From assembly GCA_023055355.1 (NCBI GenBank), contig JALJCS010000028.1, forward strand, positions 3,472,418-3,536,417: a stretch of DNA of 64,000 nt. Reading direction: 5' to 3'. Below the pieces are notes generated by a model that searched no databases, was not told the origin of the DNA, and saw nothing but the letters and a program-made list of their open reading frames with translations. The DNA is from Agelaius tricolor (taxonomy: Eukaryota; Chordata; Aves; Passeriformes; Icteridae). Each line of letters starts with the position of its first letter. Positions within the stretch are counted from its first letter, which is position 1. Below are positions 618-29,825 of the stretch, in pieces. The position numbers and the translations under genes are program-made.

Positions 618-6479
<5,862 letters not shown>

Positions 6480-6717: not shown

Positions 6718-7160
6718 TCAGAAGCGGCGGGCGCTGGAGCTGGCGTTGCCCTTCCTGCGCCTGGTGTCGGCGCGGGGCGCCAAGGGCTGCAGGCGGAAGG
6801 GCCGGGCTGGGGCGCGGTGCTGCCCGCAGAGCCTGCGGGAGCTGCGAGAGGAGCGAAAGGGGGGTGGTGGGGCAGCGCAGGACCCCAAAATGCGGCTGCG
6901 TCCCGCGAGAAACCCCCGAGAGGTCAAGAGGTTAAGGCGGAAATGATCTTGGGTGGGTCGCCTATATTATAATAAAATATACTGAAATGCTTGATTTCTC
7001 AAGGAAAAGGAGGAAAATGAGTGCCGGCGATATCTGGGCAAGGGGGATTACCTTGGTCCAGCTGCAGGATCTGGCTGGCTCGCCGGGATCGGAAGCAGTT
7101 GCTGGCAATGGTCTCGCTGTCGCTCCTGTCCAGCACTAGCCTGGAGTGGTCTTCCTCGGG

Positions 7161-8100
7161 CTGCAGGTGGCAAACGCTGTCAGCAGCGCCAGCAATGGGG
7201 CAAAATTGGTAAAATGGGATAGAAATGGAGGAGGAATGGGCCGTACCGCTGGCTCCCTGCTCTCATTCGAGGGGCTTGTCCGGCCAGGTTTGGGCTGTGG
7301 CAGGGCTGGAACCGCTGTGGGAAGAGATGGTCGCTGTGTGTACAACAAAAACCACCCTGCTGGCTGCATTCCCTGATCCCGGCACTATCACATTCCCGAG
7401 GGATCCGCACCAAGTGCCACCTTTGTTACTCACACTTTGCAGACAAACCGTGTGTGGAGGATGTTACGAGTGCACGCAGCCTGAGCGTGGCCTGCCGAGC
7501 ATGGCAGAGCCATGGTCACCTCCCTGTCCCCCACAGTGCCCTCCTCTCCCCAGGCACTGTTCCCTTGTGAGAAATGAAACCCTGGAGATGAGAGCTCTTT
7601 TTCAGAGTGGTAATTGCTAGTTGATGTTAATGAAGTTGATAGGGTCTTAATTTGAAGTGTTGGTCTGTTGTTAAATATTGAATGTTAAGAGTTCTGGGAC
7701 TTGCCTTTAGCTGCTGCTAAGTGTTACTGTTTTACCCTATATTTATATCCCTTTCCATCACACTCTGTATTTGTGCCCCTTTCCATCAGGAACCACTTCC
7801 CCTGCTCCCAGGGGGACTTGCACCCAGACTGAATTTAAATAAGAGGATGTGGGTCCTATAGGAACCCTCTCAAAAACAACAAACCAGCACATAAACTATG
7901 ATTTTAACCCAGCAGAACCACACTAAATCACCCACCCTTGACCAGAGCCGGATTCCGTCCTGCCACCATAAATTTTAATAGTACTCAGCTTGGATGATAC
8001 CCCTAAGCTACGAGCCAGCTTCAATATTTGGAAACTTTCCTAATTTAGGTACAAATTAGGATTAAATAAAATAAATTAATCCAGAGCAAAATTAAATAAA
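7161..8100. other. KIF17 intron sequence without recognisable gene
   Basis: Unique sequence between two late KIF17 exon remnants. I found no exon, RNA gene or repeat family here. An A/T-rich block lies near 7960-8100. Confidence 0.5.
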
Positions 8101-8205
8101 TCCAGAGCAGCTGTGGCTGCACCTGGATCCCTGGGAGTGTCCAAGGCCAGGCTGGATGGGGCTTGGAGCAGCCTGGGATAGTTGAAGGTGTCCCTGCCCA
8201 AGGGA
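8101..8205 (+). mobile_element. CR1 LINE 3' fragment
   Basis: The text CAGCTGTGGCTGCACCTGGA, then GGCTGGATGGGGCTTGGAGC, then GAAGGTGTCCCTGCCC is the conserved 3' portion of avian CR1, read in sense on the plus strand. It is truncated at both ends. Confidence 0.75.
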
Positions 8206-8705
8206 GAGATTATTCCATGTCTGTTTTAAAGAAAGTCTTCTCATGTTTTTCCACAGGGATGATATTTGAATGAAGCTGAACCTAATCTTATCTTAGAACT
8301 CCTGGAATTTCCTAAATTTGGTTAAAAAGGTGCAATATTTCTTTGATAACCTAAACACCCAAATAAAGCAAGTCCTTCATGTGTAGGTCTAGGACTGTAC
8401 ACACAGATATCAATTTTTTTGCAGACCCTCTGACTCGACCACAAAATATCAGAGCAAAACTGATTTTCAAGTGTTTTGAAAATGAAGATTTTAAATGTAA
8501 AATTTAAGAGCATTACTTTATAATGTTTTGTTTCTTGCCCCAGAAAGCGAGCTCAGAACGGGCAGCAGCTGCAGCAGATCTGAAGGTCGGCAGAGGGAGT
8601 CGCATCCCCTCCCATCCCAACACGTGCTCCTCCCGCCAGGTGTCACACACTGAGCCCTTACCGCTGCAGGGGTTTGGGCTTAAAAGCTTAATCCCCCACC
8701 TGAGG

Positions 8706-9326
8706 TGTGAAAAATGCGTATTTTATGATTGGCTTTTCGCAAATATTAAAATGAATATTATATGTGTTGTGTTAGAAAGTAATACTGTATTAATTCTCTT
8801 AAGTAGTGTGTTAAATGTAGTTTTAGGTTATAACAAAATGTTAAAATAGAAACTATGCTATGTAAGATACTTTTTTTTCTAAAGAAAGGACTTGCACTGA
8901 GATAGCAGCTACAGGACACCTAAATCTTGCAGAGAAAAAGAATTTCTTGCCCCATTATCAGGAGAAACAAACTTCTTCCTTGCTCGGGCAGGACGACGCC
9001 GTTAGGAATATGAGGAAGAAGCTGACACTGCCCAGACAGAATCCTGTGTTTGAGTGGAATTTATGGGTCATTTATGAGGTGTATGAATATGCAACAGGTT
9101 ATTGTTTTTAAGGGTTAATCCTCTGTGAACGTGGGTCCTTTTTCAGGCTTATGCTGCCCAGAAAAAGGTACCCAGATGTCTGTAACTCTTTGTTTTTATT
9201 GTCTTATATTGTCCTAATTCAAATTGAAGAAATTATTATTATTCTAATTGTATTACTATTTTTATAACCATTTTATTACTATTAAACTTTTAAAATTTTA
9301 AAAGCAAGTGATTGGCGTTTTTCACA
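8706..9326 (+). mobile_element. Solo LTR, family B copy 1 (ERVL-like)
   Basis: A 621-bp element begins TGTGAAAAATGCG and ends GCGTTTTTCACA. Both ends are flanked by TGAGG (8701-8705 and 9327-9331), a perfect 5-bp target duplication as in class III (ERVL) elements. It is clearly homologous, in opposite orientation, to 18930-19546. No internal genes remain. Confidence 0.85.
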
Positions 9327-9824
9327 TGAGGGATTTCATAAAAGCTCACACACACAACGTGGTGTATGAAATCCTGACACAGCCAGAGTCATTCTCTAAA
9401 CCCACAGCCCTGGAACACAAAAAATGAGGGTGTGGAGGAGGAAGGAGCTGCTCCCTCACCTTCTCCTGCAGCTCCTCCAGTGCCTTGGCTCAAAGCTCCT
9501 CCTGGATGGAGTCATGGACCTTGAGGAGGAGCCTGCTGGCTGCTGGCCTCGCTGGATTCCTGCAGGGCTTGTGCTTTTCCTGCAGGTCCTGTGCTTTTCC
9601 TGCAGGTCCTGGTTCTGAGCCTGCTCTCCCCCAGCAGCCGCTGCTGCAGCACCTGCAGAAGGGAGCACCGAGCTCAAGAACAGCTCCACAAGCATGGAGG
9701 AGGCATGTCCTTCCACAGGTGACATTTGGGAAGACAGAAAAATGGGAATTATTATAAGATTTTCTGCCCTGAGTAATCATAGCAGATTGTACTTATTATT
9801 AACACTTTCTGTCATAAAAAGAAT

Positions 9825-9965
9825 CCCAGAATCCCAGAGTGGTTTGGGCAGGGAAGGACCTTAAAGGCCATCTCACTGCACCCCCTCAGCAGGGCTACCT
9901 CCAGCCCTGTCCAACGTGGCCTTGGACACTTGCAGGCATCATGGGGCAGCCACAGCTTCTCTGGG
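9825..9965 (-). mobile_element. CR1 LINE fragment
   Basis: The order AGAATCCCAGAGTGGTTTGG, GGACCTTAAAGGCCATCT, CCTGTCCAACGTGGCCTTGG is the reverse complement of the CR1 3' end. Some internal sequence is missing. Confidence 0.75.
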
Positions 9966-11795
9966 CAAAATACTCCCCAAAGGCAAAGCATGTGTTACTG
10001 CAAGCACCTCAGTCAACAAGGATGATCAGAAATCCATATCTGAGCTCATAAAATTATCTTTAAAACCCTTGTTTTGTGTACTTTATATTTAAATTCTTGT
10101 TTAAATAAACATCAAATATTTTTTTTCAAGGATGCACAAAAGGTGCCAAAATCACACAGAGAATTATTTTAACTGGTGGATGTGGGAGTGTTAGATCTGA
10201 AAGCCACAGGATGGTTTCCATTTTGGGGCAGTATCAGCCATGGTTTGTGTCACCTCAGCATTGTTAATGCAGCACTGGCACAGGCCTGTGTTTGAAATCA
10301 TCTCTGGCATGGAAATAAAGCTATGCTCCAGAGCATTCCTTTGTCTAGCTCAGGTTGGCCAGCACTGTCTCAAATTGGCTGATAACCCCTTTACTGATAA
10401 CAGCCTCCTAATTATCTCCAAACCCTGTGAAATGGCTCATTCTCCCCCAGAACTGACCTGCTATTCTGCTGCACTGCTCCTGCCAGGTGACCTTCCCTTT
10501 CCTCTGCTTAACACACACTGGATCCAAGGATTCAGTCTTGCTCTGCTGAGCTGCCCTGATGTGCAAAGCTTGAGCAGGTGCCTTTGAAATCCTCACACCT
10601 GTGGAACCAAACCCTCCTGCCCAATCTGCACAGAACCTGGATTTAACAATGTGATTAGAAGGGCATTTTCCCTTGTTTGCCACAAAAGGATTCATTCTTG
10701 CAATAGGACCACTAACATTTGATATCAAATCCAAAGGAAGGCTTTCTTTAGAGATCTCTCCCTTAACAGATAGAATTGCCCATAAATTACAGGCACTGCT
10801 GTTCTGCATTTCATAGCAGCTCCATTTTGAGCCAGGAGAGACCCAACAGAGTGAGCACACACCACAGGGAAGCTGAAAGACTGGTTAAAACCCACAGAAG
10901 GACTGGTTAAAACCCACAGAACTGTTCAGAATCAGACTGTCACAGCATATCTTGGCTTGAGCTTTTCTAATTGTATACAGTTCCACATAATGGAGGAAGT
11001 GAAAATTCAGGAGAATTTGCTTCAGTCATGTATTTCTGGAGCAGCCCAAGCCCCCATGCTGCTTCAGTATGTGGTGGTGTGCTGTGGCTGAGGGAATTCT
11101 CTCAGGACAGCTCTCACACAGAGAAAACCTTGAGCCAGGTTGATTTTGATTTGGGCTGAACACGAGTCCAAGCCTGCATCCCTCATATCCCAGCCCTGTC
11201 CTCCAGGCCCTGGCAGTGCCCCTGGAATAGGATTATTGGGAAAGTTTGCTGTTAGTTGTGGATGATGTGCTGCAAACTCTGTGAGATGCATGAGCTGGAG
11301 GCAAAAGTGGCTTCAGTGATGGGAAGAGTCCATGCATGAGCCACAGGACAGCTGCTGCCTTACCTGTAAGACATGAGAGGGCTCCAAGTGTGCTTCAAGG
11401 CCCTCTTTCAAGAGGAAAAGGAGGCATCTCCGTAACCTGTGTGGGCACTTAAGGCTCCCCTTCCTACAGCTCCAGGCAGAATTTGTTACCACTTTTTGGC
11501 ATCCACGTTTGCTGACTTGAACATCTCCATTCTTCTCTCAAAATTCTGGCACTCAGCCCCACTGAGCACTGCAGGGAACAGCTCTTCATCCACCCAACAG
11601 GGCAAAGTTAGTTCTGGGTTAAAAACAGCCTGGAGGAGAGAAGGCTCCAGGCAGACCTTAGAGCCTCTCCTGGTTGCTTAAAGGGGATCCAAGAAATCTG
11701 GAGAGGAACTTTGGACAAGAGGCTGGAGTGCCAGGACAAGGGAGAATGGCTTCCACTGCCAGAGGAAGGGATGGATGGGGTATTGGAATGGAATC

Positions 11796-11988
11796 CTTCC
11801 CTGGCAGGGTGGGCAGGCCCTGGCACAGGTGCCCAGAGCAGCTGTGGCTGCCCCTGGATCCCTGGCAGTGCCCAAGGCCAGGCTGGGCAGGGCTTGGAGC
11901 AGCCTGGGACAGTGGAAGGTGTCCCTGCCATAGCAGGGGTGGAATGGGATGAGCTTTAAGGTTCCTCCCACCCAAACCAGTCCATCAT
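11796..11988 (+). mobile_element. CR1 LINE 3' end, interrupted by solo LTR
   Basis: The CR1 3' end is read in sense through GGTTCCTCCCACCCAAACCA and stops exactly where the LTR at 11989 begins. The LTR therefore inserted into an older CR1 copy. Confidence 0.8.
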
Positions 11989-12402
11989 TGTCACAGACAT
12001 CTTTTCTGAAAAATCCTTTCCTTAGGATTTTTCCTCTTGAGGAGCTGAGAGGCCTCAGGAACAAAATATAAACAATGGATATTTGTTTATTTATCCAATA
12101 AACAATGGTTATCTGCTGCTGTGGAATGCAACAGGTGCAGCTGGGATTGGGCTCATGTGGTTGTTTCTAATTAATGGCCAATCACAGTCAGCTGGCTCAG
12201 ACTCTCTGTCCAGACACAAGCCTTTGTTATCATTCCTTCTTTTTCTATCCTTAGCCAGCCTTCTGATGAAATCCTTTCTTCTATTCTTTTGGTATAGTTT
12301 TAATATAATATATATCATAAAATAATAAATCAAACTTTCTGAAACATGGAGTCAGATCCTCATCTCTTCCCTCATCCTCAGAGCCCTGGGAACACGGTCA
12401 CA
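11989..12402 (+). mobile_element. Solo LTR, family A copy 2 (ERVK-like)
   Basis: A 414-bp element begins TGTCACAGACAT and ends CACGGTCACA. It is flanked by CATCAT and AATCAT (6 bp, one mismatch). It is longer than the other family A copies because of a local duplication around ACAATGGATATTTGTTTATT near 12070-12110. It lies about 140 bp from a KIF17 exon remnant. Confidence 0.85.
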
Positions 12403-15400
12403 AATCATTTTAACTCACATGTGCCTGGTTTGGGGCTGCACTGCAGGGGGAGCTCAGCAGCTGTGGTGCCATGGCAGAGCTGCCCCTGCCTGAGGGTGTG
12501 CCCGGGGGACAGAAGGCACAGGCAGGGATGTCACTGACCTGGCCAGCACCAGCTGCTGCTCTGCAGGCAGGGAAATCCCCGGGGCAGGGACAGCTCCCAC
12601 TGCTCCAACACTGCCCCTGCTCACCCCACTGGTGTCTGTGACAGTCCCTGGTGCTGCTGGGTCCTGGTGACAAGAGGAAAACAAAGGCTGTAGCTCTGGA
12701 AAGACACAGTGAGAGTCCTGGGGAAGATGAAGCACAATGTTACCCACTCAGGGTTATTCATCCAGAGGGGAGAAGGAGCCTGGAGGGTACCTGGGCTGAG
12801 GTTGGCTCTTTATGTGCTGCAGCAACAGCATCTTCATGTGAAGGTGTGTGGTGAGAGATTGTTCTAGTCCGTGTGGCAGCTGAAAAGAGGAAATACACGC
12901 AATGTTGGTAATGAGCTGTGCAAAACTAGACAGAAATCTGTGAAACCATCTCCCAAAGCTCCCCCCAAAGCTAGGAATGACGTGTCTGGAAGGAAAAGGG
13001 CTGTCATTCACCTGCTTCTGCTGGGCAGTAAAAACCACGAAACACTGAGAGGGTGTATCAGGAAAGGAAAGCAGATTGTACAGGGCTGGGAGAGCCTGGC
13101 TCCAAAAATCATCCATTTCACAGGCTGGGGGTGCACATTTGTAATCAGAGGGGAAAGAAATAAAGAACCTCTCAACCTTCACCTCAAAATGCGATAGCAC
13201 CAAAAATGAAGAATACAGGTTCAGGGATTACTAGTGGGTGATCAGTGCTGTATGAGCACATTGCAAACCATGCTCTGAGGCACTGCAGGTGTCCATGAAA
13301 AGCAGAAATGGGGAGGGAGAGGGAGAGGAGGCAATTTCTAGGATGTGAGAGGAATATCTGCCTTGCAGTGAGCGATGGTGTGGATAATCCACCGGGAGAG
13401 CCAGTGCCGGAGCACATTTGCATACGGAGGAAGAGACTGCGGCAGCCACCCCGCCCTGCCCTCGGCAATGAGAGTCCAAGGGGAGGGGACAGAGCAGTGA
13501 CCTCTGCTCCAGAGCCACGCTGCCCTCAGCAGGGGCAACTCTGCTCCGTGGGCAAAAAGCAGGTGTTTTACTCAAAAATGAGGCTTTTCATTGCCTCAAG
13601 GCTTACAGGGTCAGGCTGGTTCCGACAGGGAAAGAAGTCAAGGAAAAAGGGAAGAGGACAAAGCTGGGACAGAGTCTTAAATTCAGGAGAGGCAGAGTCC
13701 CTGCTCCTGCTGTGGATGAGCGTGGGCTGAGAGCAGGGACTGCTGCTGCCAGGCAGCACTTGCTGCAGTGGCAACACTTGCTGCCTTTTAAAGGCTGCAG
13801 TGCCTGCCACAGATGTGAGTGCAAAACCAGTCCCTGCTGCTGAGGGAACCTGGGCTGGGCTGCACAGCCTCCACACCTGCTTCCTTCCTGAGGAGATGCT
13901 GAGAACAGACACCTTGAGATCAAAGTCACCCCTCAGGCTGCTGCTGTCCTTCTCCAGGGGGGCACGGGATGCCTGCTCTGCTTGGTAGCTGGCCTGGAGC
14001 TGGGCCAGCCTCTCCTGGAACTCCTGCAAGGCACAGCAACAGCCCTGGGACTGTTCCCAAGGTCACATCCAGGCCCATTCCAGGTCACACCTTATGCCCA
14101 TCCCAATACAACTCCACCACCAGTATCCACTGACTTTTCCTGTGACTTAAGTTGACACAGGAGTGATTGTTGTTGATGAAAGTGACTGTTCAGCCCTAGA
14201 AACAGCTGCCTTGGCTGGTTGTGGTGCCCTGGAATGAACTTTCTAAAGAGCAAAGAGAGAGTTTTGTTTCCCTCTGGCTCTCTATTCCTCTTTTTCCTCA
14301 CCTCTGTACTCTTCCTAACACCTTTGACTATGCTTTCCTCAACTCTATTCCTCTCTTTTCTGACAATTTCACATGTAGTTCCTCCAAAAATTCTTCCTGG
14401 GAATCCATTCCAATCCATCCCCAGAGAAGTGGAAACAAGAGGTGGCTTATCATAAGGCACAGGGCCTCCATAACACATGGTCTGTTCATAGGAGAAGTCC
14501 AAGGATTACAAAATAGAGAAAAATAGAAAAAGAGAAGTGTTCTGGAAAGGCTGAACCATATTTGTAATGATTACTATGAAAAAAGTTTTAGTCAAAGCCA
14601 CTCTTCCCAATTTACTTCTGTGATCAGCTGCTTCTCTGCTTCCAGATCCACCTGGGGTTTGAGGTAGGGAGCTGGATTTGCTCCCAGGTGAGCAGCCCCA
14701 GCAGGTAGAAGCCCTACAAAGCAAAGCAGAAATAAAAATCACTCACAGTCACAGGGTGGGATTGTCAGCAGAATTCCTGGAAAGAGAACAAAGAAGCTGG
14801 GTGCCAGGAAAGAACATGGCAACCCCTGTGCTCCTTCAAACAGCACTCGCTGCCAAAATGCTGCCAGCCCAGGGCTCCAGAGCTGTGGGGAGAGAGGGAG
14901 AGGTTCCAGCTTCAGGGGAAAATGGAAGTGAATGTAATTGGATGGTATTTATACATAAAAGTATCTCTTTCAAAGAAAACCAGGACTTGTTTCCAGGGCT
15001 ATGCTACAGATTTGGGAGATAAAAGACACCGGGAAGATGAAAAGTGCAAGGAAATTACCTTTGTTCCCAGCTGTTTCTGAAGAAGGCAGAAAGGGGGGAA
15101 AAGTCATCCTACAGCCTTATTCCCTGCTGAAAATTGCCCTTTTTTAGGGGCTAATTCTCCAAAGGTGATCAGCTCCCTAAGGACTGCTCTCCCCTACATT
15201 TGCTCCTACATTTCCTATTCCTGCTCCAGAGGACAGAGCAGGTGTGCTGAGGCTGGGCTGAGTCCTCAGGCACTGCCATAAGGAGGGCAAAACTTCTCTT
15301 GTAGTGTCAAAAACATACATTGTAGGAAAAAAGGGGCTGAATGCTTACTTTGAAAACATACATATATATTCAAAAAAGAATTTTACAGTATTATTTCTTT

Positions 15401-16066
15401 TGCAGCTCATTTTTGTTCTTCCTACTGAAACCTCTCTTCTGCAACTGACCAAATTCTAGCCACAATCACCAAAAATAACCATGGATTTGAATCACGTTCA
15501 GCCTTTTCTAACAGAACTTGCCACTATTGAAAACACTGGATTATTGAGATGGTCTTTGCCATCTCAGTAGAATAAGGTCAATTTGGCAGCAGTGAAGGAA
15601 AAGTCTGTAAACAGAATGGAGGATTCTAAAGATCCAAACAGCTTGGAGTCTGTAGGGAATGTGTCTGCACCTGCCATCCACCAGGGCTGAGATGATGTTG
15701 CCCACGGCAGACAGGGACAGGTTGATTTTGGTGGCCTCTTTGAGCCTCTCCCCTGTGGCACCAGTCCTTGCCTGTCTCTCACTTCCTGCCAGATGCACCA
15801 AGTTGAGTTTGGCAGCCCTGAGGTGATCCTGCCCTTGCTCATCTGCATGGAAACAATTCCCAGTCAGCTCGTAGGAGGAAGCATCTCAACAGTCAGAACC
15901 AGGACTGTTTTGGCTCCACGTCCTGTTCCAGCCCTGCTCTTTGTCTGCTTTGGGCCCTGACTCCCTGAAGTAAGAAAAAATCTACTTAATCTAAACACTG
16001 CACAGTTTAGTGCTTTTCTCAACAGGATCCACAGTAAAAATTTATGCCTGTTCTTGCTCTCTCTGA

Positions 16067-16085
16067 ACACACACACACACACACC
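16067..16085. repeat. (AC)n microsatellite
   Basis: A run of about nine AC dinucleotides in a KIF17 intron. Confidence 0.9.
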
Positions 16086-16220
16086 CCTCCACATATTTCA
16101 GCAGTATTTACAGTTTCAGCCAAAGTCCTCTACAAGTAACATGATCTGACCATGAGTTTATACAACTTTTTCCTCCTCAGTTTGTTTCATGAGGGGAAAT
16201 TTAGATGAGATATACAGAAA

Positions 16221-16355
16221 TCCTTCCCTGTGAGGGTGGGGAGGTCCTGGTCCAGAGCAGCTGCAGCTGCCCCTGGATCCTGGGAAGTGTCCAAGGCCAG
16301 GCTGGACAGGGCTTGGAGCAGCCTGGGACAGTGGGAGGTGTCCCTGCCATGGCCC
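16221..16355 (+). mobile_element. CR1 LINE 3' fragment
   Basis: The conserved CR1 string CAGCTGCAGCTGCCCCTGGA, then GGCTGGACAGGGCTTGGAGC, then GGTGTCCCTGCCATGG is read in sense. It is truncated at its 5' end and lacks the terminal short repeats. Confidence 0.75.
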
Positions 16356-16871
16356 AAAACCCCCCAGATGAGGAGATGGATCCTGATGAGGAGTCAAACC
16401 CAGTGAACTGGTGCCATTCCTGTTGTTCTTCTATTATTTCTCTAGAGTCCCATAATTATATTATCAGACTTCTAAAGTCCATACCTCTTTGGTGTATTCT
16501 CATACTGCCAATCTTCACTGACTCCTTCTTCTGCATGCTGTTCTCTCTCAGGTCAGAGCTCCTCCAAGGCTCTCCCTGACTGGCTATCCCACCCCCTTTT
16601 ATCCCAGTTCTCTTCATTGGTCACAGCTGCAGCCCAATTAAGGACATGGCAGCTGCAGCCCATCAAGGACAACCAGGACCTCTGGGGCAAAGCCCCAGAC
16701 ATAAACCCCCATTCTAAACCCCCAAAATTCTCCTTTTCTATCTTGTGACAAACTAACTATCATTCTACTTAAACTCTCGTGGCTTGTAAATCTTCACACA
16801 GTTGGTAATTTTCTCCATGGGTTAAAATGAAAGGCACAGGTGTCTTTGGCTTCGTGCTCAGAGACCCCCTG

Positions 16872-17259
16872 TTGTCACAGACATCTTTTATGAAAAATCC
16901 TTTCCTTAGGATTTTTTTCTCCTGAGAAGCTGAGAGGCCTCAGGAACAAAATGCAACCAATGGTTATCTGCTGCTGTGGAATGCAACAGGTGCATCTGGG
17001 ATTGGTCTGATGTGGTTGTTTCTAATTGATGGCCAATCACAGTCAGCTGGCTCAGACTCTCTGTCCAAGCTACAAGCCTTTGTTATTCATTCTTTCTTTT
17101 TCTATTCTTAGCTGGCCTTCTGATGAAATCCTTTCTTCTATTCTTTTAGTATAATTTTAATATAATACATATCATTAAATAATAAATCAAACCTTCTGAA
17201 ACATGGAGTCAGATGCTTATCTCTCCCCTCATCCTCACACCCCTGTGAACACGGTCACA
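16872..17259 (+). mobile_element. Solo LTR, family A copy 3 (ERVK-like)
   Basis: A 388-bp element begins TGTCACAGACAT and ends CGGTCACA. It has a perfect 6-bp target duplication CCCTGT at 16866-16871 and 17260-17265. It lies about 155 bp from the damaged KIF17 exon 4. This copy fixes the true ends of the family. Confidence 0.9.
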
Positions 17260-18929
17260 CCCTGTCAGGGGCTCGAGCCATCCAGGGCAGCCAGAGGGAT
17301 GTCCTGGGTTCTGACTCTCCCAGGGAGGAGGATTTTTCTGCTGCACCTACCATCATTTGGGATCCAAGGGTAGCTGAGGGATGATGAGTGGCCTCACAGG
17401 GTCTCCAGGTACGCACTGAGAGCGCAGATTTCCACACAGACAGCGAAGATGGAGTGGGAGCAGGAGGAGCTCTTGTTCATGAGGGTGAAGCCGCTGCTCT
17501 GTTCCTGCAGCCCCTGTCCATCAGCTGCTCACGCTGTGCACAGCGTGCAGGGACAGCCCCTGCACGTACAGCCCCTGCTCAGGGTGCTCCTTCAGCTGCC
17601 AACAGGATAACACAAGCCAGGTCACAACAAGGGGCACTGAAAGCAGGGAAAATTACACTGGGAATGGCCCAGAACCTTGAGGGCTACGTGAAATTAAACT
17701 GCAGTATGAGAAAAACACATCTGACTGCCACCAGGAAGCCTGAGTTCTGAAGGAGGAATAAAACCACAGAGAAAGAAGGAACCACCTTCGTGGCTCAGAG
17801 AATTCAAGCTAAAAGTTGCTGATTGATTCAGACATCCCCCAGGCCATGAGGAACCCAGCTTCTATCCACCCTCCACCTTCTCTATTATTAAGCTGCATAT
17901 TTTAAACAAGAATCAAAATACATCTCACCTATTATGGCAAAGGCTGTAAGATCTCCTCAGCCATAGGAAGCTTTTTTTAATACCAAAGGACAGATACAAT
18001 ATTCCCAGATATTGTTCCCAGTGCTTTGCTGAAGTCTTTGTTCTGAGTGGGTGGTTTGAGCTCACTGACAACATTCCCAAAGTAACACCCGTCACACACA
18101 GGTGAACTGTCACCATTTTTCTCCAGATTAATTAATTTTTAAATGAACAAAAGTCGTATTTGGGACTCTGGGTTGAGACAGAACATTAAATACCCAACAG
18201 CATCTTCTCAGTAATTATCAATTGCATAGATGAAAAGTTTCATGCAGAATGTTAATAAGCAATGGAAATATCCAAAATTTTGAGTTACCCATCAAACCTA
18301 CACAAAAAATACAAAATAATCCAGAGATCCCTGCACTCCTACACCAGCCCCCTCCACACTGGGAATTTTAAATGAGCTAAATTAATTTTCCACAGCTCTG
18401 TTACACCCCACATCTGCTAAGTTCATCACCAAAACTATCTTTATCATGTCAGCTGGGATATCGAGATATGGTTGTCATGATGGAGCAGCACAGACCACAT
18501 TTGGCACTGTGACTTCCAAAGAGGAGGCTCAGCTACCTCAGTGATGTTCACAAGAAATGATGTAAAACAGCATTTGCTGTTAAAAAAATCCCACAGAACA
18601 GAGCAAAAGTGGCCAAACACTCAACTGGGTGGGATTTATGCTTGTTCCAAAGCCATGATGCCCAGGATGAACCCAGTACAGTCACTGTTCATACACTGTG
18701 GCTGCTCTGTGCTGCTGAGAAGCCCAGCACTGGCCTGGCTCTGTCTGGGGGTGCTGCAGAGTCCCTGAGGAACACCTGACCCAGGACGTGGCTGTAGTCA
18801 CTGAGGTGAAAGGCAAGGGAATGAACAAAATGGGATTCTGGGGGAACTGGGGGACTCAGAGGTGTGCAGTGGGGCAGCCTGGGATTTGTTTGGGCAGGAC
18901 ACCCTCCCTCAAGTACTCGGTGGAGGCAG

Positions 18930-19546
18930 TGTGAAAAACGCCAATCAGTTGTCTTTAAAATTTTAAAAGTTTAATAGTAATAAAATGGTTATAAAAATAG
19001 TAATACAATCAGAGTAATAATAATTTGGACTATTTAAATTAGGACAATATGGGACAATAAATACAAAGAGTTACTGACAGTCCGGGTACCTTTTTCTGGG
19101 CAGCACAAAGGACCTGAAAAAGGACCCACGTTAACAGAGGATTAACCCTTAAAAGCAACAGCCTGTTGCATATTCATACACCTCATCCATGATGCATAAA
19201 CTCCATTCAAATACAGGATTCTGTCTGGTCATCATCAACTTCTTCCTCTGAATCCTAACAGTGCCTTCAAGGCAGGAAGAAGTTTGTTTCTCCTGATAAG
19301 AGGGCAATAAATTCTTTTTCTCTGAAAGATTCAGGTGTCCTGTGGCTGCTGTCTCGCTGCGAGTCCTTTCTTTAAAAAAAGTATCCTCCATAGCACAGTT
19401 TCTATTTTAACAATTTTTATAACCTAAAACTATATTTAAAACACTATTTAAGAGAATTAATACAGCATTACTTTCTAACACAACACATAGAAGATTCATT
19501 TTAATATTTGCCAAAAGCCAATCGTAAAACACATGCGTTTTTCACA
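18930..19546 (-). mobile_element. Solo LTR, family B copy 2 (ERVL-like), inverted
   Basis: A 617-bp element reads TGTGAAAAACGCC to GCGTTTTTCACA on the plus strand. It is flanked by GGCAG at 18925-18929 and 19547-19551, a perfect 5-bp target duplication. Its body is the reverse complement of the copy at 8706-9326, sharing for example the ACTCTTTGTTTTTATTGTC and CAACAGGTTATTGTTTTTAA blocks with small differences. Confidence 0.87.
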
Positions 19547-21050
19547 GGCAGCAACAGGCAGCGTGACAGAGTTACCCTGGAAACGGCTCTGCCCAGCTCC
19601 TGCCCGCCCAGCGCCAACAGCATCGCCATGGAAACCCGCGGCACCCCCGGTGTGGAACAAAGGAAGGGAAACTGCAGCAAGAAGTCCCCTGCTCCCACTC
19701 TCCCTCTGCAGGAGACAAGCAAAGCACGCTTGGAACATGGAGCAGAGACGGGTTTGCCTGCCTTAAAGGCAGAAACCTGTCAGGAATACCTGCCCTGTAA
19801 GGCAGTTTGGGTCTGTTGCCATCCCAGAGCGTTGCAAGGTGCTGCTGCCTTGGTTTTATACACCAGGGCAGTCCTGCAAGGAAGGAAATTGGGACAGGGG
19901 ATTTCTAGCTCCTCCCAGGAATACATACAAAAGCATCTGCAAAGCCACCAAGAGGTAAATTTTATAAAGATCAGCCCCCTGGTTAGGATTTTGGGAGAGT
20001 TTACCCTCCTATGGTCCTGTAAATGTCACATGTGTTCCCGTGGGGAATAATATCTACTGTGTGCCCTCAAAAAGGATCAGCCTTTTTTGTTTAGGCAGAT
20101 AAAGAGATCATCCGTGGCTCCACTAGATCAGATTAAACATTTATAAGGCCCAGAATCCTCTTGCTATAGAGACAAGCATGAGATGAAGAGGAAGAAATTG
20201 CCCCATGAGCACTTTATTCCAGCCTTGTCCAGTGAAGGATTTTCACAGAGCTGCTGCTGAGCTACCAGCCACTCTCATGTGGGATACACTGGACATGTCT
20301 CCAACTGCATCCTGCTCCTAAACTTTCACTCAAGTCCCTCAAAAGTCCCTCTCAGCTTCCATATTTCTCATGTAACTTCATATTCTAGCACTCAGGCTTC
20401 AGACAGAGACCTTTGTTGCACTTCTGTAAGTCATGGTAACAGCCATCTGAGCTAATTAAAGCACTTAATTAAGACACATTGAGCCTGTCTCACCTCCAGC
20501 TTCTGCTTGGTGTCAGCTCCTAGAAGGTCTCCTATGTCCTCTCTGTAGATCTCCAGGCAGGAGGCTCCCAGCAGGAGCTTGGTGTTTTCAGCACACTGCA
20601 GAGCCAGGGGGGAGTGGGGGTGAGGCTGCACAGCACAGGGAGCCCCTCCCACAGCTGGGTGCCCCCCACCCTCCAGCACCTCACTCAACCCCCCTGGCCA
20701 TTCACTGCAGGTGGAACCACTCAGCACCAACTGCAGGGACCCCTGGTCCTTCCACACCTCAGGGTCACAATGGCACCTGGCATGAGGGGACAGTTAGTTC
20801 ATGTCACTATGCACAGGCCCCAGCTTAAGGATGAGGAGCAGTGCAGCCACATTTCTCTTCACAGAGAAAAGCAAGGAAGGCACAATTCTTCCCAAGAATA
20901 TTTCTGGGTTTCACATTCTTTGAACCTCAGAGAAAGGAAAAACCAATTCTTATCATTTGCTGTGCCTGTGTTTGTGCCAAAGTAGAATGCAATATGGAGA
21001 TTGTTCACCCACAGTGATGGTGGTTTGTTCCCTTGACCTGTCAGGGCCAG

Positions 21051-21072
21051 GTGTGTGTGTGTGTGTGTGTGT
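21051..21072. repeat. (GT)n microsatellite
   Basis: Eleven GT repeats in KIF17 intron 2. Confidence 0.9.
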
Positions 21073-22304
21073 CAGGACTGCCACTGGCAGTCACGAGATT
21101 CAGAGCAGTGTGTGCAGAGTGAGTGCTTGGCAGATTCAGTTTAGATGCAATGTAATATTGCATAAAACAATATAGTATAATAAAGTAATTAATTAGCCTT
21201 CTGATATCAGTGGAGTCAGATGCATCATTTCTCTCCCCTCCTTGGGGTGCCTGACAATACCATAGAGCAGTGCACCCCAAACCTGTCCCCATTCACACTT
21301 CATGCCATCAGCACTCACTTCTTGGCACAGGACACCAAAGTCTTTCTAGAAAACCTTGCCAGGATCTCTTTCACACCCACCTGTACACTCTCAAAGATGT
21401 GTTCAAACGCCCTGGGAATGGTCCCTTTCTGTGAGGAAGAATCTGCAACTCCCTGCATGGTGAAGGACTTCCCACTGCCAGTCTGGCCACAGGCAAAGAT
21501 GGTGCCATTGTAGCCTTCCATGGCACCCTGGAAATGGGGGGAAACCAGAGAAAACAGCCAGCATCTTTGCCTAACTGGAAACACAGTGTCCAGATTCATT
21601 CCCACCCCCTCAAAAGGTGTTTTAAAGGAAGAGCTGGAAGTAAACACGAAAAGGCTGCTTAATCTTCACACGTCATCAGAGTATAGCAATTACAAAATTA
21701 GCATATAAATCAATGTTTTTCTCTCAAAACAAGGAATCTTGAAGCAGTGCAGATGTTGAAAAGCAGTTGACAACACCAACACTTAGCAAACTATAATATT
21801 TTTGCCATAGGGCACAAAAATCTTACGAGATTCAAAGAGACAACTAGAACAATAGTTGGTAGGGGGTGGCCAAGGGGATGGACTCTAGCTTTGAATAACT
21901 TTTGCTTGGCAAGCTGCTCACTGTCACTTGTCCCTGTTTCAGAGAAGTGTGGTAGGAAGAAAAAATAACTGGATTTCTTAAGGTTTAAATAAGAAAAAAA
22001 TAACCTATTCTAATATCTACTGTTTCTAGCCCTGCTTGTTCTCATGATTAGGAATTTCTATCTTAAAACCATGACGAGCCATTTAATCTGTGTTACTTCT
22101 TCTAACAAAACTTTTTTTTTGGGGGGAGATTGGTCTTTTTTTGCTTAACAGGTTCATTTCTAACCTCAGCTGTTTCCTGTGCTGATCTGCTAACAAGGAA
22201 ACAAAGGGATCCCCTATTCCCCTGGGAATCCAGGCTGAGGTTCCCCATCTTCTCTAAGGTTTCTCACTTGACAGTAAAAATGTCCCTAAAATCCTCAGTT
22301 TGAT

Positions 22305-22465
22305 ACCCCAGCAGCTGTGGCTGCCCCTGGATCCCTGGCAGTGTCCAAGGCCAGGCTGGACAGGGCTTGGAGCAGCCTGGGACATTGGAAAGTGTCCCTG
22401 CCCATGGCAGGGGTGGGATGGCATGAGGTCCCTTCCCACCCAAACCATCCTGGAATTCTGTGATA
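22305..22465 (+). mobile_element. CR1 LINE 3' fragment
   Basis: Includes GGCTGGACAGGGCTTGGAGC, GTGTCCCTGCCCATGGCAGG and the near-terminal CCCTTCCCACCCAAACCATC, followed by ATTCTGTGAT. It therefore reaches the true CR1 3' end. Confidence 0.8.
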
Positions 22466-22644
22466 TAAACATCCACCTAAAACAATTAAATGTAACTCTC
22501 CTCAGTGCCCTGCTGCTGCTAACAAAGTTTTGTTTCTTCCCAATTTCTCAGACTGTTGCTGGGACACTGTCTGCTCTCCTCTGCTGCCCAGGCTTGTAGC
22601 TAAGCCTCTTGAAGCAGTGGACAGGGCTTTCTGCCCATAAATCA

Positions 22645-22705
22645 GGAACCCCAAATGGTTTGGGTTGGGAGGGACCTTAAAGTTCATCTTGTTGCACCAT
22701 TCTGC
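22645..22705 (-). mobile_element. Short CR1 fragment
   Basis: GGTTTGGGTTGGGAGGGACC followed by TTAAAGTTCATCTTGTTGCA is the reverse of the CR1 3' end. Only about 60 bp are recognisable. Confidence 0.65.
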
Positions 22706-23261
22706 CACGGGCAGAAGGTGGGGAAGGTCAAGTGGATCCTGCTTCACTTAGGGATCACCTGTAAAACCCCTCAGCCCCTGTCCCGAGCTATGTGTTCACA
22801 GAACATGCTCAGCTGCAAGGAACCCACAAAGATCAGAGTCCAACGCCTGGTCCTGCATGGACACCCCAACAATCCCACCCTGTGCCTGAGAGCATTGTCC
22901 AAACGCTCCTGGAACTCATTGAGGTGCCCAAAACTGTGCGGGCTGCCCTGGGTGCCCACTGACCTCCACCAAGGGGTAGGCGATCTCGCTGTAGATGTGC
23001 TCGTAGGCGATCTCGCTGTAGATGCGCTCGGTGCTGTGCTCTCCGCCGAAGGCCCCGTCCAAGGAGAACTGCCGGGGGACTGGGCGGGGGCCGCGGGGTT
23101 CCGCACCAGGCACCGGCCCCGTGAGCTGTCCACGCCCACGATGGACAATGGCCCGGTGGCCCAGGGCCGCCTCCCGCCCGCTCAGCGGCCGGCAGCGCAC
23201 GGCCACCTTCACCGGCTCCGCCGCCATCGCCCCCGCCACCCACAGACGGACAGTGACGGGC

Positions 23262-25059: not shown

Positions 25060-29825
<4,766 letters not shown>

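What the first reader, a model, noticed from the sequence alone, without database searches (positions are those of the whole stretch)
6718..23227. KIF17 appears to be lost (unitary pseudogene) in this bird while both neighbours are intact
Recognisable kinesin-2 exons are in order and on the expected strand, but the reading frame is broken repeatedly. Exon 4 lacks about 10 nt after HSV and one G before FTLMN, with a resulting stop at 17521-17523. Exon 5 lacks 2 nt at PYR|DSKL. The tail-coil exon has a 20-bp duplication and a TGA. The motor segment after DSKL and parts of the stalk and tail were not found. DDOST and SH2D5, read the same way, show no lesion, so general assembly error is unlikely. 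Loss of the homodimeric kinesin-2 in a bird lineage would bear on ciliary and dendritic transport biology.
Basis: partly seen in the sequence, partly recalled or inferred. Interest (0 to 1): 0.9.

Follow-up and report, generated by a model that had tools for sequence, protein, structure and literature searches.

The report
Songbird's broken KIF17 kinesin gene
In this bird, which the sequence places next to wagtails among songbirds, the gene for the transport motor KIF17 is broken in many places between two undamaged neighbours and no other copy was found in the genome assembly, so the bird likely makes no working KIF17; a wagtail's annotated copy reads through and a crow's is likely decaying too, which would make songbirds natural knock-outs for asking what this motor is for.

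Summary
Minus strand 23227-6718 is the remnant of KIF17, the homodimeric kinesin-2. A splice- and frameshift-aware alignment to wagtail KIF17 finds 13 exon remnants in order, 10 frame-breaking indels (11 reported, one dropped as junk), one TGA and two lost exon blocks (aa ~293-374, end of motor and neck; ~608-684). Substitutions break switch I (SSRSH to SSCSH) and switch II (DLAGSE to HLAGSE), motifs identical in 59 of 59 reference species. DDOST, SH2D5, KIF3B and KIF3C, run the same way, show no frameshift or stop. The full-length search of the 1.16-Gb assembly found no second KIF17; the lost tail block has no significant match in it. Surviving codons show at most weak constraint. The nearest protein, Motacilla alba KIF17, has an uninterrupted model, so the loss is likely younger than that split; the crow model decays separately. 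Reads, RNA and dN/dS could not be checked. A new case of a known kind: a unitary pseudogene.

The parts
22964..23227 (-). KIF17 exon 1 remnant (ATG at 23227): 7-nt insertion near 23149-23140, 1-nt loss near 23079, 27-nt in-frame tandem duplication (23029-23003); frame open overall
21381..21527 (-). exon 2, intact, P-loop GQTGSGKS
20494..20595 (-). exon 3, intact frame
17417..17595 (-). exon 4: about 10-nt loss near 17532, 1-nt loss near 17494, resulting stop at 17523-17521, switch I SSRSH to SSCSH
15639..15842 (-). exon 5: switch II DLAGSE to HLAGSE, 2-nt loss at 15651, no donor after DSKL
14714..15638 (-). interval where the exons for residues about 293-374 (end of motor, neck) are missing
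14616..14713 (-). exon with AEKQL, readable
13877..14023 (-). first coil exon, 1-nt loss near 13903
12791..12879 (-). stalk exon, readable
12535..12663 (-). stalk exon, readable
9454..9652 (-). tail-coil exon: -1 near 9634, 20-bp duplication with deletion near 9575-9560, +1 near 9529, TGA at 9492-9490
7334..9453 (-). interval where the exons for residues about 608-684 are missing
7247..7333 (-). tail exon, readable
7052..7160 (-). penultimate exon, readable (34 of 36 residues as in wagtail)
6718..6841 (-). last exon with terminal stop, 1-nt loss near 6806
621..6416 (-). DDOST from residue G1 of the reference used to its end, 11 exons, no frameshift or stop (control)
26065..29825 (-). SH2D5, the part that aligns to residues 1-345 of a fused crane model, no frameshift or stop (control)

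Best explanation
The locus 23227-6718 (minus strand) is the remnant of KIF17 between SH2D5 and DDOST; it carries ten frame-breaking indels, a TGA and two missing exon blocks and is therefore predicted to make no working motor, a likely unitary pseudogene. Shown by calls: the lesions, the broken switch I and switch II motifs, clean neighbours and kinesin-2 paralogues, and no second copy found in the assembly. Inferred: KIF17 was still under constraint until the crow and wagtail lines parted; constraint then weakened, a first disabling change was fixed in this bird's line after it split from Motacilla, and further indels, exon deletions and nearly unconstrained substitutions followed. A transcript from the old promoter would be read to a stop after 195 aa in exon 4, with nine recognisable exons downstream, so it would likely be degraded. 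Ciliary and dendritic transport is presumably left to KIF3A/KIF3B/KIF3C.
For: Identity: nearest solved structure C. elegans OSM-3 (333 bits) before KIF3B (292); window groups with Motacilla KIF17 at support 100, and both with Corvus at 100. Lesions: 11 frameshifts and 1 TGA with the Motacilla reference, one frameshift dropped because it lies in junk over the lost block; with five references 10-12 frameshifts, the TGA seen with 4 of 5. Controls: 0 frameshifts and 0 stops in 4 of 4 (DDOST, SH2D5; KIF3B and KIF3C loci; SH2D5 has two small in-frame deletions and one codon insertion). Lost exons: neither block in the window (best E 0.28 and 0.70); tail block best E 0.257 in 1.157 Gb. No second copy: of 57 genome matches to Motacilla KIF17, 10 are the window's own; none of the other 47 reaches past residue 455; the two best are KIF3C and KIF3B; an 81% match of 36 aa belongs to another kinesin. 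Constraint: 15 of 144 covered invariant motor sites changed, mean 0.3% and maximum 3.8% (Podargus) in 32 non-passerine birds. Since the split from Motacilla 52 changes fall on the window branch and 9 on Motacilla (7 unresolved); the window rate is 0.064 at invariant and 0.105 at variable sites, p=0.12; against pooled pairs of other birds p=5e-6, non-overlapping pairs 2e-4.
Against: No reads or RNA. The frame of exon 1 is open overall, exons 2 and 3 and five later exons are readable and most splice sites are kept, so the loss is not old and fragments could still be transcribed. The invariant-site rate is nominally below the variable-site rate, so early constraint on this branch is not excluded. 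One exon 1 indel lies in a run of five C, a place where sequencing errors occur. The genome search with the lost motor block alone never ran (15 busy errors); only the full-length search covers it.
Confidence: 0.94

Rival explanations
1. Assembly or sequencing error: the gene is intact in the bird and the lesions were made by bad consensus.
For: Only one assembly was available and no reads; one indel lies in a C run.
Against: Four control genes have no frameshift or stop; invariant residues are changed by substitution; two exon blocks are gone without any N in the window; a 27-nt and a 20-nt duplication and a 10-nt loss are not typical consensus errors.
Confidence: 0.03
2. The working KIF17 lies elsewhere and this is a dead duplicate.
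For: Bird assemblies can miss GC-rich genes (recalled); 214 contigs, so not gapless.
Against: No second copy among 57 matches; tail block absent genome-wide; the remnant has introns and sits between SH2D5 and DDOST, as the fused crane and goose models imply for other birds.
Confidence: 0.02
3. A shortened gene with a new role: the open exons 1-3 give a 195-aa P-loop fragment, or the locus makes a regulatory RNA.
For: ATG, exons 1-3 and their splice sites are open.
Against: The fragment lacks switch I, switch II and neck; changes are spread over invariant and variable sites; a stop with nine recognisable exons downstream is expected to trigger decay (established knowledge).
Confidence: 0.03
4. 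One old loss shared by songbirds, with the wagtail model an annotation artefact.
For: Only two passerine entries in the best-120 list; the wagtail motor itself has 9 of 201 invariant sites changed.
Against: Wagtail reading is complete over 796 aa with switch I core and switch II kept, and its branch is seven times shorter (0.017 versus 0.116); the stem shows constraint (ratio 0.12).
Confidence: 0.07

Closest known systems
KIF17, homodimeric kinesin-2 (C. elegans OSM-3)
   Same: Exon order, motor and tail sequence, position between SH2D5 and DDOST.
   Different: Ten frame-breaking indels, a TGA, altered switch I and II, end of motor and neck missing: not a working member.
CNR2 lost in parrots, a bird unitary pseudogene (PMC9727682; start of abstract in the listing)
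   Same: One gene dead in a bird lineage while other birds keep it.
   Different: Other gene and lineage; here the nearest relative found has an open model and a second songbird line appears to decay separately.
Human KIF28P, pseudogene of the ciliary kinesin KLP-6 (PMC12646758, passages)
   Same: A ciliary kinesin dead in one vertebrate and working in other animals.
   Different: Kinesin-3, and in humans.

Membership tests
Unitary pseudogene of KIF17 | Lies at the orthologous place | tested here: met
   Between SH2D5 and DDOST; a crane model fuses SH2D5 with KIF17, so SH2D5 is the neighbour in another bird too. The DDOST side in other birds is recalled.
Unitary pseudogene of KIF17 | Intron-exon structure kept (not a processed copy) | tested here: met
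   13 exon remnants, most with GT and AG ends
Unitary pseudogene of KIF17 | Several independent disabling lesions | tested here: met
   10 frameshifts, 1 TGA, 2 lost exon blocks
Unitary pseudogene of KIF17 | No functional copy elsewhere | tested here: met
   limited to the assembly held
Unitary pseudogene of KIF17 | Functional orthologue in relatives | tested here: met
   Uninterrupted protein models in other birds and in Motacilla; function itself not tested
Unitary pseudogene of KIF17 | Loss of purifying selection | tested here: inconclusive
   Protein level only: 0.064 versus 0.105, p=0.12; no relative's DNA for dN/dS
Unitary pseudogene of KIF17 | No functional transcript or protein | not testable with these tools
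   No RNA or protein data
Working KIF17 / kinesin-2 motor | P-loop GQTGSGKS | tested here: met
Working KIF17 / kinesin-2 motor | Switch I SSRSH and switch II DLAGSE | tested here: not met
   SSCSH and HLAGSE
Working KIF17 / kinesin-2 motor | Open frame through motor and neck | tested here: not met
   Stop after 195 aa; residues about 293-374 absent

The most novel reading that the evidence does not exclude
KIF17 is being lost again and again in songbirds: constraint on this homodimeric kinesin-2 fell after the crow and wagtail lines parted, at least two lines (this bird's and the crow's) have since killed it separately, and most songbirds lack it while a few such as wagtails keep it: a repeated natural knock-out of a ciliary and dendritic motor.
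Probability: 0.5. Interest if true: 0.62.

Novelty: new member of a known kind. Interest (0 to 1): 0.48.

Why it matters
[quoted passage not shown] A bird that lost the gene, beside a relative that seems to keep it, would let cilia, photoreceptors and synapses be compared with and without the motor in wild animals. If crow and other songbird losses are confirmed, the loss dates and traits could be compared. For genome annotation, it warns that KIF17 models in songbirds need checking for repaired frames.

Tried and rejected
Tried: (1) Missing motor exons through junk: the aligner's first setting threaded residues 293-374 through non-matching DNA (10 of 41 identical in one piece); rejected, since the block has no match better than E 0.28 in the window. 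(2) Alternative splicing: 8 of 8 combinations keep no switch I or II. (3) Transposon as cause of the lost tail exons: a roughly 620-bp repeat lies in that interval but is bounded by a 5-bp duplication TGAGG, which fits simple insertion; not shown to have caused the loss. (4) A stricter claim of full neutrality: one polarisation gave equal rates at invariant and variable sites (12 of 188 and 22 of 380, p=0.85) but left 28 ambiguous differences; resolving them with Corvus gave 0.064 versus 0.105, so I claim only weak or no constraint. Literature on a KIF17 loss in birds: nothing (open-licence PMC papers only, listings seen).
Full report
What is there. The window (64,000 bases, no N) lies on contig C28 of an unnamed 1.157-Gb, 214-contig assembly. 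On its minus strand, from 23227 to 6718, are the exons of KIF17 in order. The nearest solved structure to the read-through motor is C. elegans OSM-3 (333 bits), before KIF3B (292); among proteins the nearest are bird KIF17s. The nearest used here, Motacilla alba KIF17 (P0165, 796 aa), groups with the window at support 100, and the two with Corvus hawaiiensis at 100, in a tree of 23 sequences (other deep nodes are weak). Both named birds are Passeriformes, so the window bird is a songbird nearer to the wagtail than to the crow (inferred from the tree).

Lesions. I wrote an aligner that allows introns, frameshifts and lost blocks. Against Motacilla KIF17 it gives 13 exon remnants, 11 frameshifts and one TGA. 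One frameshift (15566) lies in junk aligned over a lost block and is dropped, leaving ten: two in exon 1, two in exon 4, one in exon 5, one in the coil exon, three in the tail-coil exon, one in the last exon. Against Spheniscus it gives 10 frameshifts and one stop; against Motacilla, Accipiter, Porphyrio, Struthio and the turtle Malaclemys 10 to 12 frameshifts, with the stop in 4 of 5. Exon 1 also has a 27-nt in-frame duplication. Residues about 293-374 and 608-684 have no counterpart in the window (best E 0.28 and 0.70). Spliced as annotated, translation stops after 195 aa at 17523-17521 with nine recognisable exons downstream.

Controls. DDOST (413 residues of the human protein, 11 exons) and SH2D5 (345 residues of a crane fused model, 8 exons) align with 0 frameshifts and 0 stops; SH2D5 has two small in-frame deletions and one codon insertion. 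The KIF3B and KIF3C loci of the same genome, aligned to the much more distant KIF17 motor, also give 0 and 0; their names come from the PDB. A KIF3A-like locus (L005, name recalled) has readable motor exons.

Motor chemistry. In 59 of 59 non-passerine reference species switch I reads NKDSSRSH and switch II DLAGSE; the window reads NKSSSCSH and HLAGSE, Motacilla NKGSSRSH and DLAGSE, Corvus NKDSSRPH and DLAGSE.

No second copy. The full-length search of the assembly gives 57 matches: 10 are the window's own exons, and none of the other 47 reaches past residue 455. The best two are KIF3C and KIF3B. An 81% match over 36 residues on C30 was fetched and belongs to another kinesin. The lost tail block alone has no match better than E 0.257. 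The lost motor block alone could not be searched (15 busy errors).

Constraint. Of motor sites invariant in the references, the window changes 15 of 144 covered, Corvus 16 of 165, Motacilla 9 of 201; 32 non-passerine birds average 0.3%, with a maximum of 3.8% in Podargus (8 of 209). So the wagtail gene too is unusual. Polarised with Corvus and other birds, 52 differences fall on the window branch, 9 on Motacilla, 7 unresolved; window rates are 12 of 188 at invariant and 40 of 380 at variable sites (p=0.12). Pooled pairs of other birds give 10 and 299 changes, which differs from 12 and 40 at p=5e-6; with non-overlapping pairs 6 and 135, p=2e-4. The ratio of invariant to variable rates is 0.12 on the branch shared by crow and wagtail, 0.48 on the wagtail-plus-window line and 0.88 on the crow branch. 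I read this as constraint until the crow-wagtail split, weaker constraint after it, and separate decay in the crow and in the window bird (inferred; the crow entry is labelled LOW QUALITY PROTEIN and begins in exon 2, and its DNA was not seen). Small numbers and one aligner limit this.

How the loss probably happened. Inferred: after the split from the wagtail a first frameshift or exon deletion was fixed, and the rest followed. Which came first cannot be told. Mice without Kif17 are viable and the zebrafish mutant is mild (passages of PMC5808637; similar remarks in passages of PMC12646758), so loss is tolerable; the trimeric kinesin-2 motors remain.

What is new. I found no report of KIF17 loss in birds (listings; open-licence papers only). 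As a kind it is ordinary: a unitary pseudogene. Its interest lies in the gene, and in the likely repeated decay in songbirds.

Noticed in passing
8706-9326 and 18930-19548: Two copies of a roughly 620-bp repeat in opposite orientation, each beginning TG, ending CA and flanked by a 5-bp duplication (TGAGG; GGCAG): look like solitary long terminal repeats.
   Followed up: partly
12009-12402 and 16894-17259 (also by eye 2680-3070): A second repeat family of about 400 bp in the KIF17 introns and a DDOST intron (third copy seen by eye).
   Followed up: no
8102, 11833, 16252, 22306 (102 nt each): Four direct copies of a 102-nt repeat, 89-91% alike, with an inverted relative at 9893.
   Followed up: no
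P0241 (Balearica) and P0245 (Anser): Gene models that carry a PTB domain (PF00640) and KIF17 in one protein; in the crane the first 345 residues are SH2D5: read-through transcript or annotation fusion.
   Followed up: partly
P0259 (Podargus strigoides KIF17): Eight of 209 otherwise invariant motor sites changed, by far the most among the non-passerine birds tested: decay or a model error.
   Followed up: no
P0242 (Corvus hawaiiensis KIF17): LOW QUALITY model starting in exon 2 with SSRPH in switch I; its branch shows almost no constraint.
   Followed up: partly
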